From: Bifidobacterium pseudolongum subsp. pseudolongum DSM 20099
Lineage (GTDB): Bacteria > Actinomycetota > Actinomycetes > Actinomycetales > Bifidobacteriaceae
Direction of reading: 5' to 3'
Length of the DNA stretch: 64,000 nt
NCBI RefSeq assembly: GCF_000771225.1
Contig: NZ_JDTZ01000002.1
Span: 248,001-312,000 of the forward strand
In this document: positions 59,290 through 64,000 of the stretch, piece after piece
Layout of the letters: every line of letters begins with the position of its first letter
Position numbering within the stretch: the stretch's first letter is position 1
Made by a program: the position numbers and the translations under genes
The notes under the pieces: model-generated
Seen by the model: only the letters and a program-made list of their open reading frames with translations
Told to the model about the DNA's origin: nothing
Database searches by the model: none

Positions 59290-59349
59290 CCATTCGGGGT
59301 TTGTGAGGCTCACCGCTGTGATGCGGACAGCCGCACAAACCCCGAATGG
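59290..59349. terminator. Inverted repeat between convergent genes, one arm inside gntR
   Basis: Sixteen-base perfect arms CCATTCGGGGTTTGTG (59290-59305) and complement (59334-59349) flank 28 bases. The right arm encodes residues near the C-terminus of the GntR protein, whose stop lies inside the loop. Confidence 0.6.
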
Positions 59350-60077
59350 TGCATGGTGAACCGGATGCGGGCAGCGTCATACACATCGGTGGCGCGCTCG
59401 CACGGCCGGCTCTGCTGGTCATAAGCCACACGGTTGATCCGCAGTGTCGGTGCGCCAGCCGGCACATGCAGGCGGCGCGCCGCCGCCTCGCAAGCCGGCG
59501 CATAGTCGAGCGTCTCATCCACGCGCTGCGGTCGGATCTTGTATTCCTGTTGGAACAGCCCGTAGAACGACATGCTCAGGTCACGGTTGAGGAACCCCGG
59601 GAACAGATATGCGGGCAGATGGTTCGTCTCCACAGAGAGCGGGGCATCGCCAAGCATGCGCAGGCGTGTGACCGCATACACCGTCGGCCGGTCCGCAGGC
59701 AGCCGCAGCAACCGCATGTCAGACGCCGATGCCGGCGCCACGACGGCGCTGAGCACAATGGACTGGAGCGCCCATCCCTGCCTCTTGGCGATCTGCGTGA
59801 GTGATTCCACAGTATTGAGATTGCGTTCCAACCGGCCGTCGGAGACGACGATGCCACCGGCACGGCCGATTTTGCGCACAATCTCGTGATTTGATTCGAG
59901 TTCGGCGAGCGCCACGCGCAGATTCGAACGCGAGACGCCAAGCAGTTCGGCGAGCGCGCGCTCGGTGCCGAGTTTTTCACCCGGCATGAGTTCGCGTTGC
60001 GCAATGATCTGCCGCACAACGCGCACGACGTCTTCGACGTTCGTGCGCGTGGCGGTGGTGGAGTTGGGTTGCTCCAT
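59310..60077 (-). CDS. GntR family regulator, HutC/UTRA type
   Basis: The 255-residue protein has an N-terminal winged helix-turn-helix (about 18-80, GEKLGTERALAELLGVSRSN) and a C-terminal UTRA ligand domain (about 95-245, with VYAVTRLRML, SVETNHLP and RPCERATDVYDA). Its ATG is one base after the aminotransferase stop, so it is the last gene of the kinase-permease-PLP enzyme unit and presumably controls it, with the pathway substrate as ligand. The start at 60077 is chosen over an ATG at 60116 inside the upstream gene. Confidence 0.9.
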   Translation of the reverse strand: MEQPNSTTATRTNVEDVVRVVRQIIAQRELMPGEKLGTERALAELLGVSRSNLRVALAELESNHEIVRKIGRAGGIVVSDGRLERNLNTVESLTQIAKRQGWALQSIVLSAVVAPASASDMRLLRLPADRPTVYAVTRLRMLGDAPLSVETNHLPAYLFPGFLNRDLSMSFYGLFQQEYKIRPQRVDETLDYAPACEAAARRLHVPAGAPTLRINRVAYDQQSRPCERATDVYDAARIRFTMHHSGFVRLSASQR

Positions 60078-60078
60078 A

Positions 60079-61443
60079 TTACAGACCGAGTTCCTGCAGT
60101 GTGTCGGTGAAGGCACTCATGAACCAGTCCACGTCCTGCTCGCTGAACACGAGCGGCGGGCGCAGTTTGAGGATGTTGCCGAACCGGCCGCACACCGACG
60201 TGAGCACATGGTGCGCGCGCAATGTTTCGAGGATGTCGAGCGCGGCGGCCTGATCGGGGTCCTTGGTGCCCGGCTTGACGATTTCGCAGCCGATGTACAG
60301 GCCGGCCCCACGCACATCGCCGATGCACGGGTGGGCGGGCATGAGGTCGGTGACCGCCTGCTTGAACACCGCGCCCACGCGCTTGGCGTTGCCCATCGTG
60401 TCTTCGCTGCGCATCACGTCGAGCGTGGCCTGCGCTGCGGCCATGCACACGGGGTTGCCGCCGAAGGTGTTGAAGTACGGGATGGAGCCGGCGAATGGCT
60501 CGAGCACTTCCTGCCGTGCGGCCATGAGCGACGTGGGCAGGCCGTTGGCCATCGGCTTGCCGCTCGTGACCAGGTCGGGCACGATCCCCTGCCGTTCGAA
60601 CCCCCAGAACGCATCGCCGGTGCGGGTGAACCCCGGCTGCACTTCGTCGGCGATCCATACGCCGCCCAGTCCGTGCACGGTGTCGATGACCGGCTGCAGA
60701 TAGCCGACCGGATCGGGATAGACGCCATCCGACGAGAAGATCGAATCGGCGAGCAACGCCGCGAACCTGATGCCGTGGCGGTTCATGTCGGTCACGGCTT
60801 TTCGCACCTCGGCCGCCATCCAGCCACCGAATTCCTCCGCTGTGCAGGCGCTGGCCGGCTTGCCGTCGATGGACAGGCGGTATGTGTCGGGCGTCGGGAT
60901 CATGCGCATGGTCAGTCCCAGATCCTGCGCGGCGCCGAGGGCCGGCGAGAGTTTGGAGGTGAGCGCGGAATTGCCGTGGTAGGCCTCGGCCGTCACGATC
61001 ACACCCTCGCCACCGGTGTAGGTCTGCGCCACGCGCACGGCGAGATCGTTCGCTTCGGAGCCCGTGCATTGGAACATGATGCGGTTGAGTTCATCGGGCA
61101 TCGTGGAGAGGATATCGTCGGCGTAGTTGAGGATGTTCTCGTGCAGGTAGCGCGTATGCGTGTTGAGCAGTGAGGCTTGGCGGTCAATCGCTTCCACCAC
61201 GCGCGGGTGGGCGTGGCCGACGGAGGCGACGTTGTTGTAGACGTCCAGATACTCCGTGCCGTCGGCGTCCCACACATGCGCCCCCTCGCCTTTCACCAAG
61301 TGCACAGGCGTGCGGTAGAACAGGCGGTATGCGGGGCCGAGCACATCGCGTTCCTCGGTCAGGCGGCGTGTTTCGGGGTCGAGAGCCGCCGCCATCTCGG
61401 GGCGGAAGCTGTTGGTGTCCATGATGGTGGAGCGAGTTGCCAT
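60079..61443 (-). CDS. Class III PLP enzyme (aminotransferase or phospho-lyase)
   Basis: The 454-residue protein is a class III fold-type I PLP enzyme. The cofactor lysine is K296 in LVTSGKPMANGLP, and IADEVQPGFTRTG carries the ring Asp. Flanking motifs FQCTGSEANDLAVRVAQ and TAEAYHGNSA are typical. These resemble the AGXT2-like branch that includes ethanolamine-phosphate and phosphohydroxylysine phospho-lyases, but ordinary aminotransferases share them. The ATG at 61443 lies about eight bases from AAAGGAG; a second ATG at 61449 is too close to it. It sits between a permease and a GntR regulator, with a small-molecule kinase upstream, which favours a phospho-lyase role (inference). Confidence 0.85.
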   Translation of the reverse strand: MATRSTIMDTNSFRPEMAAALDPETRRLTEERDVLGPAYRLFYRTPVHLVKGEGAHVWDADGTEYLDVYNNVASVGHAHPRVVEAIDRQASLLNTHTRYLHENILNYADDILSTMPDELNRIMFQCTGSEANDLAVRVAQTYTGGEGVIVTAEAYHGNSALTSKLSPALGAAQDLGLTMRMIPTPDTYRLSIDGKPASACTAEEFGGWMAAEVRKAVTDMNRHGIRFAALLADSIFSSDGVYPDPVGYLQPVIDTVHGLGGVWIADEVQPGFTRTGDAFWGFERQGIVPDLVTSGKPMANGLPTSLMAARQEVLEPFAGSIPYFNTFGGNPVCMAAAQATLDVMRSEDTMGNAKRVGAVFKQAVTDLMPAHPCIGDVRGAGLYIGCEIVKPGTKDPDQAAALDILETLRAHHVLTSVCGRFGNILKLRPPLVFSEQDVDWFMSAFTDTLQELGL

Positions 61444-61492
61444 GACCATGTCTCCTTTATTGGTTCACAAGTGGTGTTGGTGGTGTGCGGCG

Positions 61493-62986
61493 TCAGTCGT
61501 GCGTCTTGTATGCCGCGGTGCCGCCGGAAGCCGCGAACTCCTCTTCGGGTGAGAGCACAAGGTGCTTGCGTCCATAGAGCGCGAAGAACACGGTGGCGGC
61601 CGCATAGATGCCCACCATCACATACACGGCGAGCCGGTAGTCGGGGTTGAGCAGCACGGCCACGAAGATCGCAAACGAGAGCAAACCGGCCACGACCGCA
61701 CCCGGCACACCGAAGCGGCTGACGAATGGGCGCTTGATGTTCGGCATGTTGCGGCGAAGCAGCACGTACGAGACCATCTGCAGCAGGTACGCGAGCACCG
61801 CGCCCCACACGGCGATGTTGAGCACCACGGAACCGGCGCCTTCACCGCCGTACGCGATGATGAACAGGGCGGCGAATCCGATCACCGCGCCGACGACGAG
61901 TCCCCAGTACGGCGTCTTCTTCTTGCCGGTGAGCGAAAGGAACGCCGGGTAGTAGCCGGCGCGGCTCAGCGAATACAGGTTGCGGCCGTACGCGAACGTG
62001 ATGCCCTGCACCGAGGCGAGCAGTCCGATGAGCGCGAACGCGGAGAGCACCGCCGCAAGATTGCTCGGCAGCACTGCGCGGAACCCGTCGAGCAACGGCT
62101 CATCGGAGCCGGAGAGCGCGGCGGCGCCCATGACCGAGGGGTTGAGGAAGACGACGACGAGCGCGCTGATGCCGAGGGTGAAGATGCACAGTCGCGACGA
62201 CTTGGGGATGTTGCGTTCGGGGTCGCGCACCTCTTCGGCGGCGAGCGGCAGCTGTTCGATGCCCAGGAAGAGCCACATGGCGAACGGCATCGCGAAGAAG
62301 ATGGCGCCTACGCCAAGGGGAAGGAACGCGTTGTTGCCGGCGGTGGGTGCGATGTCGAACAGCGAGGCGAAGTCGACCGAGCCGCTGAACACGGCGCTCA
62401 CACCGAAGAACGCGACGATGGCGAGCGCGGCAATCGACACGACCTGCGCGAAGCGGAACGATGTTTCGGCGCCGACCCAGTTGAGGGTCACGAAGATGGC
62501 GTAGATGACGAGCCACCACACCCACTGGTACCCGGCGCCGGTGAGCGAGAAGCCGGTGAGGTCGGCGAGGATCGCGTCTGCGTAGGCGGACGAGAAGTAG
62601 ACGATCGTGGCCGCGGTCATCACGTATTCCACGGTTTCCGCCAGCCCGGTGAAGAAGCCGCCCCACGGGCCCATCGCGGCTCGCGCAAACGAGTAGGCGC
62701 CGCCTGTGTGCGGCATGGCGGACGCCATTTCGCTGATCGAGTTGAGCATGAGCACGTACATGACGTAGACCACGATGGCGGCGATGAGGAAGCCGCCCCA
62801 TCCGGCTTGGGCGATGCCGCCGTTCCATCCGGAGAAATCACCGGAGATGACGGCGGAGACGCCGATGGCCCACAGGCCGAAGGCCCCCGCGGTGCGCTTG
62901 AGCTGGCGCTTCTTGAAGTAATCCTTGTCGGTGGCCACATAGGTGACCGTTCCAAGGCCGGTTCCTGAAATACTGGACGATGACAT
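61493..62986 (-). CDS. APC superfamily amino acid/amine permease
   Basis: The 497-residue protein has about twelve membrane helices. The APC signature near helix 1, GVSAVISGDFSGWNGGIAQAG, resembles ethanolamine permease-type transporters, whose GDFSGWN pattern differs from the GSGIF of ordinary amino acid permeases. EEVRDPERNIPKS is the conserved cytoplasmic loop. It is between the kinase and the PLP enzyme genes, on the same strand. Substrate assignment to ethanolamine or a related amine is inference. Confidence 0.88.
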   Translation of the reverse strand: MSSSSISGTGLGTVTYVATDKDYFKKRQLKRTAGAFGLWAIGVSAVISGDFSGWNGGIAQAGWGGFLIAAIVVYVMYVLMLNSISEMASAMPHTGGAYSFARAAMGPWGGFFTGLAETVEYVMTAATIVYFSSAYADAILADLTGFSLTGAGYQWVWWLVIYAIFVTLNWVGAETSFRFAQVVSIAALAIVAFFGVSAVFSGSVDFASLFDIAPTAGNNAFLPLGVGAIFFAMPFAMWLFLGIEQLPLAAEEVRDPERNIPKSSRLCIFTLGISALVVVFLNPSVMGAAALSGSDEPLLDGFRAVLPSNLAAVLSAFALIGLLASVQGITFAYGRNLYSLSRAGYYPAFLSLTGKKKTPYWGLVVGAVIGFAALFIIAYGGEGAGSVVLNIAVWGAVLAYLLQMVSYVLLRRNMPNIKRPFVSRFGVPGAVVAGLLSFAIFVAVLLNPDYRLAVYVMVGIYAAATVFFALYGRKHLVLSPEEEFAASGGTAAYKTHD

Positions 62987-63009
62987 GGTGATCGCCTGCC
63001 TCTCGATTG

Positions 63010-63107
63010 TCGGTATGCGTTACTGCATGGATTCCTACTGTGTTGATTGGGTTGTTGGTTGGGTTATGGGTTGGATTGGATGATGGATGGTGAGTCTTGG
63101 TTCCCGG
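63010..63107 (-). other. G-poor, C/A-rich leader before the permease
   Basis: On the minus strand this stretch reads as repeated CCAACC, CCATCC and CCCAA units with almost no G for about 50 bases (63040-63090), unlike surrounding DNA. It may be a Rho-utilisation-like or unstructured RNA segment between kinase and permease. Confidence 0.35.
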
Positions 63108-64000
63108 TCACCGCAGCAGCCATTGGGCGTCCGCGAGGTAGTTGCGCGCGCATTGCACGGTGCCGGCGGCCTGTTCGGCGGCCAATCCTTCGGGCAGCGC
63201 GTCTTCGCGGTGGTTCGTGGTCCAGCCGAGCATCTGCAGGCGGCGGATCATCGAGAGCGCCGACATGACATGCAGTTCCTCGGAGGACATCGGCCCAGCC
63301 ACGCTCACGTACCCGTCAAGCCAGGCTTTGGCGAGCTGCGGGGCGTAGGGCTTGTGTTCGACGAAGCTGAGCGACGAGGCGTAGTCGTAGAGGTACCAGC
63401 TGTAGCCGGCGTCGTCGAAGTCGATGACGGTCAGGTCGCCGTTGTCTGCGCGGATGATGTTGCTCGGGCGCAGGTCGGCGTGGATCAGACCCCATGTGTG
63501 GCTGTCGCGCGGGTAGGTGTTCATCACGGCGAGCGCGGCGTCGAGCGCGCGTTCGCACAGGTGGCGGTCGGCGTCGCTCAGGTCCGCGGTCTCCCAGCGG
63601 CCCCAGCGCGGGGACGCGCCCACCATATCGCTGATGCCCCAGTTGAACCGTTTGAAACCGAACGGGCGGTGCCAGTGGCGCGATTGTTCGTGGAACTTGG
63701 CCGACCATTCGCCGATGGTGCGGTAGTACCGCGAAGGGTCGTCGAGGTCTTCGAGCACGGCGCCTTCCACGAATTTCGTGGAGACGACCATCCAGCCCAC
63801 GCCGTTCAGGTCGCGGATCTTCGTGACAAATGTGCCACGCACGGTGGGCACCGGGTCGATGAGACGCACGCCGTCGATTTCGTGCAGGGCGGCGAGCCAT
63901 GCGATTTCGGATGCCACCGCTTCCGGGCCGCCCACATACCCGGGCTGCGAGACGCGCACGACGCCTTCGGGCCGGCCGTCGAGCAGCAGCACGAATGTCG
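63108..64000 (-). CDS. APH-family small-molecule kinase (partial, N-terminus outside window)
   Basis: At least 297 codons are present; the frame runs past base 64000 without a good start, and the first residues (TFVLLLDGRPEGVVRVSQPG) look like an inner kinase strand. The catalytic loop is WGLIHADLRPSNIIR (HxD...N) and the metal-binding motif is VIDFDDAGYSW. The family includes choline, ethanolamine, homoserine, aminoglycoside and hydroxylysine kinases. It is upstream of an APC permease and a class III PLP enzyme. The substrate is not shown by the sequence. Confidence 0.88.
   Translation of the reverse strand, partial: TFVLLLDGRPEGVVRVSQPGYVGGPEAVASEIAWLAALHEIDGVRLIDPVPTVRGTFVTKIRDLNGVGWMVVSTKFVEGAVLEDLDDPSRYYRTIGEWSAKFHEQSRHWHRPFGFKRFNWGISDMVGASPRWGRWETADLSDADRHLCERALDAALAVMNTYPRDSHTWGLIHADLRPSNIIRADNGDLTVIDFDDAGYSWYLYDYASSLSFVEHKPYAPQLAKAWLDGYVSVAGPMSSEELHVMSALSMIRRLQMLGWTTNHREDALPEGLAAEQAAGTVQCARNYLADAQWLLR

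What the first reader, a model, noticed from the sequence alone, without database searches (positions are those of the whole stretch)
59310..64000. Candidate kinase-permease-phospholyase pathway for an amino alcohol
Four genes lie on one strand: an APH-family kinase, an APC permease with the GDFSGWN pattern seen in ethanolamine permease-like proteins, a class III PLP enzyme and a GntR/UTRA regulator one base after it. Known mammalian and bacterial systems couple APH-type kinases and AGXT2-like phospho-lyases to degrade ethanolamine or hydroxylysine to aldehyde, ammonia and phosphate. A compact version in a gut bifidobacterium would be a distinct nitrogen or carbon route. The families are seen in the sequence; substrate and reaction are inference.
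Basis: partly seen in the sequence, partly recalled or inferred. Interest (0 to 1): 0.75.

Follow-up and report, generated by a model that had tools for sequence, protein, structure and literature searches.

The report
Bifidobacterial amino-alcohol kinase–phospholyase operon
A gut bifidobacterium carries a small gene set that most likely imports a simple amino alcohol such as ethanolamine, phosphorylates it and splits it into ammonia, phosphate and an aldehyde; this chemistry is known from other bacteria and mammals, so it is a well-supported new member of a known kind.

Summary
The four genes are on one strand (59310-64000). The kinase is complete 175 bases beyond the window. The PLP enzyme is not an ordinary aminotransferase: it forms one clade (100/99 support) with human ethanolamine-phosphate phospho-lyase and the bacterial phospho-lyase A1RDF1, and it lacks the two residues that GABA-type transaminases use for 2-oxoglutarate. 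The kinase is nearest to 6EF6, the Mycobacterium smegmatis aminopropanol kinase. The same kinase-permease-PLP-GntR order occurs in 23 of 112 Bifidobacterium genomes. In other phyla related kinase and PLP domains are fused in one protein. EutB is absent from all 112 genomes, and shell proteins are absent from this one. Best reading: a B12-free, shell-free route from amino alcohol to O-phosphate to aldehyde + NH3 + Pi. Ethanolamine is the likeliest substrate, 1-amino-2-propanol second; neither is proven. No aldehyde dehydrogenase is linked; AdhE elsewhere, or the lactaldehyde reductase upstream, probably handles the aldehyde. New details: the genus holds three cassette types around the same lyase, one using a choline/ethanolamine-kinase-family protein, and a conserved GlnR-like box lies upstream of the kinase. 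The kind of system is known (A1RDF1 locus, RMM microcompartment, human ETNPPL), so novelty is modest.

The parts
59310..60116 (-). GntR/UTRA regulator (ATG start at 60077 is 1 nt after the PLP stop; GTG start at 60116 would overlap it)
   Evidence: ORF; UTRA 105 bits and GntR 43 bits; 34% identical to both GntR proteins beside the R. jostii microcompartment locus
60079..61449 (-). PLP-dependent amino-alcohol-phosphate phospho-lyase (class III aminotransferase fold)
   Evidence: Best PDB matches 6TOR 331 bits and 5G4I 297 bits against GabT 187; clade and residues
61493..62986 (-). APC-superfamily permease, ethanolamine-permease-like
   Evidence: TIGR00908 331 bits, E 8e-99, but below the curated cut-off of 381.75
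63108..64000 (-). APH-family amino-alcohol kinase, cut by the window end; complete as 355 aa to window-equivalent 64175. A conserved GlnR-like box lies further upstream, at contig C12:312264-312311 (window-equivalent 64264-64311), outside the window
   Evidence: nearest PDB chain 6EF6, E 1.4e-44; box

Best explanation
A catabolic operon for a small primary amino alcohol, most likely ethanolamine. The APC permease imports it. The APH kinase phosphorylates its hydroxyl with ATP. The PLP enzyme eliminates phosphate and releases ammonia and an aldehyde (acetaldehyde from ethanolamine, propionaldehyde from 1-amino-2-propanol). The ammonia feeds nitrogen assimilation. The aldehyde leaves through enzymes encoded outside the core cassette (AdhE, or the neighbouring lactaldehyde-reductase-type alcohol dehydrogenase). 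The GntR/UTRA protein senses the substrate or its phosphate. Family assignments, clade, residues, linkage and the absence of EutB and shell genes are shown here; substrate, fluxes and regulation are inferred.
For: The PLP enzyme matches ethanolamine-phosphate phospho-lyases far better than transaminases. It shares a 100/99 clade with them that excludes GabT, ArgD and PatA. GabT Arg398 is Lys in 55 of 55 clade members and Glu211 is Ser/Cys/Thr/Val. The kinase is nearest 6EF6 (E 1.4e-44; next best, amicoumacin kinase, 2e-14) and keeps near-invariant H232, D234, N239 and D252. The locus of the experimentally named phospho-lyase A1RDF1 (identical over the printed segment) has a kinase, an APC permease and an aldehyde dehydrogenase beside it. 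Relatives in Bacteroidota, Planctomycetota and Gemmatimonadota are single APH-PLP or APH-M23-PLP proteins. In Chimaeribacter a 59%-identical PLP gene sits beside a genuine ethanolamine permease (609 bits, cut-off 382) and a related kinase. In B. thermophilum, Pseudoscardovia and an Atopobiaceae MAG, 77-89%-identical PLP genes sit instead with a choline/ethanolamine-kinase-family protein, so the lyase keeps a phosphorylated amino-alcohol supplier even when the kinase family changes.
Against: No activity, expression or growth data exist for these genes here. The permease is below the curated ethanolamine-permease cut-off. The kinase's nearest characterised relative prefers (S)-1-amino-2-propanol, which leaves substrate open. 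No aldehyde dehydrogenase is linked in any type-1 cassette examined. Some relatives of the PLP gene have no kinase nearby (Klebsiella, Lachnospira eligens).
Confidence: 0.82

Rival explanations
1. Same chemistry, but the physiological substrate is 1-amino-2-propanol (or aminoacetone after reduction), giving propionaldehyde.
For: The kinase is closest in sequence to the M. smegmatis (S)-1-amino-2-propanol kinase (title of that work in the reference list of PMC8007038). The window's GntR is 34% identical to GntR proteins beside the R. jostii RMM locus. The neighbouring dehydrogenase passes the lactaldehyde reductase cut-off.
Against: Type-1 cassettes lack the SDR that the type-2 bifidobacterial cassettes and the P. 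aurescens, A. fabrum and Moraxella loci carry. The permease leans to the ethanolamine family. The dehydrogenase neighbour is conserved in only four of the 23 type-1 loci, window's included.
Confidence: 0.25
2. The PLP enzyme is an ordinary omega-aminotransferase (GABA- or diamine-type) and the kinase is unrelated in function.
For: The fold family is the same and annotation pipelines call relatives 'aspartate aminotransferase family protein'.
Against: Bit scores (323 to 6TOR, 284 to A1RDF1, 172 and 150 to GabT proteins), clade support 100/99, loss of the Arg398 and Glu211 equivalents, and constant kinase linkage or fusion.
Confidence: 0.04
3. Hydroxylysine route: 5-hydroxylysine kinase plus 5-phosphohydroxylysine phospho-lyase.
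For: A mammalian precedent pairs an APH-like kinase with a close ETNPPL paralogue (knowledge of the literature; Veiga-da-Cunha 2012 is cited in PMC8154272).
Against: The permease resembles ethanolamine permease, not lysine permeases; the nearest solved kinase is for aminopropanol; the genus also swaps in a choline/ethanolamine-kinase-family protein. No phosphohydroxylysine lyase sequence was available to place on the tree.
Confidence: 0.05

Closest known systems
A1RDF1 phospho-lyase locus of Paenarthrobacter aurescens TC1 (PDB 5G4I/5G4J; plasmid pTC2)
   Same: Class III PLP phospho-lyase with a kinase, an APC permease and a regulator in the same cluster; same clade
   Different: 38% identity; TetR instead of GntR, plus an adjacent aldehyde dehydrogenase and an SDR; permease only 26% identical
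RMM / aminoacetone-utilisation microcompartment of Mycobacterium and Rhodococcus
   Same: GntR, APH kinase (6EF6 family) and a class III PLP enzyme 47% identical to the window's
   Different: RMM has BMC shell proteins and an aldehyde dehydrogenase in the locus; this genome has no BMC domain and none of the type-1 loci has a linked aldehyde dehydrogenase
Human ethanolamine-phosphate phospho-lyase ETNPPL (AGXT2L1, PDB 6TOR)
   Same: Best PDB match of the PLP enzyme, 41% identity, same diagnostic residues
   Different: Not in an operon; ethanolamine phosphorylation in mammals serves phospholipid synthesis (textbook knowledge)
EutBC cobalamin-dependent ethanolamine ammonia-lyase
   Same: Same overall outcome, ammonia plus acetaldehyde (knowledge)
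   Different: EutB is absent from all 112 Bifidobacterium genomes; this route uses ATP and PLP rather than B12

Membership tests
PLP-dependent amino-alcohol-phosphate phospho-lyase (EC 4.2.3.2-type) | Class III aminotransferase fold with the PLP lysine | tested here: met
   Aminotran_3 228 bits; GabT Lys268 equivalent is Lys
PLP-dependent amino-alcohol-phosphate phospho-lyase (EC 4.2.3.2-type) | Groups with characterised phospho-lyases, apart from transaminases | tested here: met
   100/99 clade with 6TOR and 5G4I
PLP-dependent amino-alcohol-phosphate phospho-lyase (EC 4.2.3.2-type) | Loss of the transaminase Arg398/Glu211 pair | tested here: met
   Lys and Ser in the window protein; Lys in 55/55 and Ser/Cys/Thr/Val in the clade
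PLP-dependent amino-alcohol-phosphate phospho-lyase (EC 4.2.3.2-type) | Releases Pi, NH3 and aldehyde from an amino-alcohol phosphate | not testable with these tools
   Needs purified enzyme
Aminopropanol/amino-alcohol kinase (6EF6 family) | APH fold with catalytic HxDLxxxN and DFD motifs, nearest to 6EF6 | tested here: met
   APH 76 bits on the full protein; 6EF6 E 1.4e-44; H232, D234, N239, D252 near-invariant
Aminopropanol/amino-alcohol kinase (6EF6 family) | ATP-dependent phosphorylation of a small amino alcohol | not testable with these tools
   Needs purified enzyme
Ethanolamine permease (TIGR00908) | Passes the curated family cut-off | tested here: not met
   331.4 bits against 381.75; the Chimaeribacter permease scores 609.5
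RMM / aminoacetone microcompartment | BMC shell proteins | tested here: not met
   No PF00936 in the genome
Cobalamin-dependent ethanolamine utilisation (Eut) | EutB | tested here: not met
   0 of 112 genomes
GlnR regulon (nitrogen control) | GTnAC-n6-GnAAC-type boxes upstream, bound by GlnR | tested here: inconclusive
   The conserved block has TTTAC-n6-GTAAC and GTAAC-n6-TTAAT; a GTTAC-n6-GTAAT element precedes amtB; but CCA in the spacer is conserved beyond the GlnR consensus, and the exact motif is almost confined to this cassette
5-phosphohydroxylysine phospho-lyase | Clade with mammalian PHYKPL | not tested
   No reference sequence was at hand

The most novel reading that the evidence does not exclude
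A nitrogen-scavenging, B12-independent ethanolamine system special to bifidobacteria. It is switched on under nitrogen limitation through the GlnR-like box. It is modular: the kinase and transporter are exchanged (6EF6-type kinase + APC, SDR + kinase + another APC, or choline-kinase family + Na+ symporter + amidase) around one conserved lyase. It is served by amidases that free the amine from N-acyl compounds: the cell-wall CN-hydrolase sharing the box in the window's genome, and the amidase-signature enzyme in the variant cassette.
Probability: 0.15. Interest if true: 0.6.

Novelty: new member of a known kind. Interest (0 to 1): 0.38.

Why it matters
Ethanolamine from host and bacterial membranes is a major gut nutrient usually discussed through the B12-dependent Eut pathway. 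A conserved phosphorylation-elimination route in about a fifth of Bifidobacterium species would let these commensals take nitrogen from it without B12 or a microcompartment, which can be tested directly by growth and knockout. Whether bifidobacteria have a nitrogen master regulator is still stated as an open possibility (PMC10448974), and the box upstream of the kinase is a concrete candidate target.

Tried and rejected
FucO-type alcohol dehydrogenase as a core cassette member: rejected, since it is linked in only four of the 23 type-1 loci, all in close relatives. Linked aldehyde dehydrogenase: none found in the type-1 loci; in the genome only AdhE and a second Aldedh-family gene, taken to be ProA-like, were found. 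Canonical four-part GlnR box in the genome with up to 2 mismatches: no match. Ordinary-transaminase reading: rejected by tree and residues. A1RDF1 and Mallette-Kimber papers: not held, so their content is cited from memory only. Structure prediction was not run because sequence matches (E 1e-98 and 1e-44) already settle the folds. Some 'FUSED' labels (L073, L075, L159) are adjacent overlapping genes, not fusions; Pfam confirmed true fusions in L126 and L114.

Full report
Observation. The families are confirmed: GntR/UTRA regulator, class III PLP enzyme, APC permease and APH kinase. The window is G000:C12:248001-312000 of a 1.90 Mb assembly, closest at this gene to Bifidobacterium pseudolongum subsp. 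globosum (98-99% identity). Past the window the kinase is complete (355 aa), and 259 nt further upstream lies a lactaldehyde-reductase-type Fe-alcohol dehydrogenase. Spacing is tight: 121 nt kinase-permease, 43 nt permease-PLP, and 1 nt PLP-GntR if GntR starts at its ATG.

Conservation. In 112 Bifidobacterium genomes, 32 hold a close PLP relative, and 23 have kinase, permease, PLP and GntR on one strand in the same order. In one of these the GntR gene is 5.6 kb away. Named carriers include B. moraviense, B. ruminantium, B. avesanii, B. pongonis, B. goeldii, B. merycicum, B. choerinum, B. cuniculi, B. apri, B. boum, B. psychraerophilum, B. minimum and B. gallicum.

What the PLP enzyme is. Against the PDB it scores 331 bits to human ethanolamine-phosphate phospho-lyase (6TOR) and 297 to the bacterial phospho-lyase 5G4I, against 187 to a GABA transaminase. 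A careful tree separates E. coli GabT, ArgD and PatA and a GabT structure from a clade with 6TOR, 5G4I, the R. jostii microcompartment enzyme and the window protein (100/99; quick tree). In the alignment, GabT Arg398 is Lys in all 55 clade members and Glu211 is Ser, Cys, Thr or Val. From general knowledge, these two residues let GABA-type transaminases handle 2-oxoglutarate. The window has Lys and Ser. This fits a lyase that does not need an amino acceptor.

What the kinase is. Its nearest solved relative is 6EF6 (155.7 bits, E 1.4e-44), and the next is far weaker (2e-14). I identify 6EF6 as the M. [quoted passage not shown] the title of that paper appears in the reference list of PMC8007038. 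Catalytic positions are near-invariant across 20 relatives.

Linkage. The gene of A1RDF1 itself sits with a kinase, APC permease, aldehyde dehydrogenase and SDR on pTC2 (sequence identity checked). Kinase and PLP genes are neighbours in Shinella, Microvirga, Burkholderia, Agrobacterium, Acinetobacter and Chimaeribacter. In Bacteroidota, Planctomycetota and Gemmatimonadota they are one protein, sometimes with an M23 domain between. Chimaeribacter adds a true ethanolamine permease beside a 59%-identical PLP gene. R. jostii has the same kinase and PLP families in a microcompartment locus.

Three cassette types in one genus and its neighbours. Type 1 (window): kinase, ethanolamine-permease-like APC, PLP, GntR, no SDR. 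Type 2 (L052-L055): PLP, an SDR of the UcpA family, kinase, a different APC permease, GntR. Variant (B. thermophilum L082, Pseudoscardovia L086, Bifidobacteriaceae MAG L102, Atopobiaceae MAG L096): a PLP gene 77-89% identical to the window's beside a Choline_kinase-family protein, a second weak kinase-like protein, a sodium:solute symporter and an amidase-signature enzyme; a GntR gene follows in the first three. Replacement of the kinase by a choline/ethanolamine-kinase-family protein around the same lyase independently supports an amino-alcohol phosphate as lyase substrate. The SDR in type 2 and its absence in type 1 favour ethanolamine for type 1 and an aminoketone/aminopropanol-like substrate for type 2; this is inference.

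Fate of the aldehyde. The genome has one AdhE-like protein (Aldedh and Fe-ADH in one 956-aa frame) and one other Aldedh-family gene, taken to be ProA-like. No EutB occurs in 112 genomes and no BMC shell protein in this one. So the aldehyde is probably reduced to the alcohol or oxidised to acyl-CoA by AdhE, or reduced by the neighbouring dehydrogenase. That dehydrogenase is linked in only four of the 23 type-1 loci, so it is not a core part.

Regulation. Upstream of the kinase a block is conserved while its flanks are not: GTAAC-n3-CCATTAAT, 16 nt, KTWAC-n6-GWAAC, then about 32 nt to CACAAT. Its 5+6+5 units and 16-bp gap resemble GlnR boxes as described in PMC10704036, and a GTTAC-n6-GTAAT element precedes amtB. 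The exact core GTAACNNNCCATTAA occurs 19 times in 112 genomes, against 5 for the reversed control. Fourteen sites were read and lie upstream of a type-1 kinase; one lies upstream of a cell-wall carbon-nitrogen hydrolase in the window's genome; four were not read. Because CCA in the spacer is conserved and the motif is nearly cassette-specific, it could equally be the operator of the cassette's own GntR protein. This is unresolved.

Comparison with what is known. The chemistry (ATP-dependent phosphorylation followed by PLP phospho-elimination) is known from human ETNPPL, from A1RDF1 and, from memory, from classical Pseudomonas amino-alcohol work and the RMM kinase paper, which I recall as reporting that the kinase is commonly linked to a candidate phospho-lyase. 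Gut genome surveys predicted the related Aut microcompartment pathway in a few genomes with a different enzyme assignment, a transaminase (PMC6620236); that text contains no mention of bifidobacteria. Hence: new member of a known kind, of moderate interest.

Noticed in passing
L082:3441-11331 (B. thermophilum); also L086, L102; L096 (Atopobiaceae MAG) has the enzymes but no GntR was seen downstream: Variant cassette: the same phospho-lyase (77-89% identical) with a Choline_kinase-family protein, a second weak kinase-like protein, an SSF symporter and an amidase-signature enzyme instead of the 6EF6-type kinase and APC permease.
   Followed up: partly
L052, L053, L054, L055: Second cassette type in bifidobacteria with a UcpA-family SDR between PLP and kinase genes and a different APC permease; genome G069 carries both types.
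   Followed up: partly
L004:12902-15709 (contig C12, about 10 kb from the cassette): Predicted secreted, possibly sortase-anchored protein with two carbon-nitrogen hydrolase stretches; the only other genome site of the GTAACNNNCCATTAA box lies about 125 nt upstream of its start.
   Followed up: partly
L183:1501-3015 (G039 contig 45): Apparently decaying type-1 cassette: box and kinase 5' part intact, then truncated kinase, PLP and GntR pieces joined by deletions, in a genome that keeps a type-2 cassette.
   Followed up: no
L070 (Klebsiella plasmid), L072 (Lachnospira eligens): Close PLP relatives (55-58%) with no kinase nearby but with ABC importers; possibly import of an already phosphorylated amine.
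   Followed up: no
L114, L115, L120, L122 and similar: APH kinase, M23 peptidase and phospho-lyase-like domain in one protein of about 1000-1150 aa; the role of the M23 domain is unclear.
   Followed up: no
L057, L058, L062, L063: More distant bifidobacterial members of the phospho-lyase clade (42-45% identity) without a detected kinase or GntR neighbour of the window type.
   Followed up: no
L059:7055-8530 (B. gallicum): PLP gene with an in-frame insertion of about 37 codons relative to orthologues.
   Followed up: no
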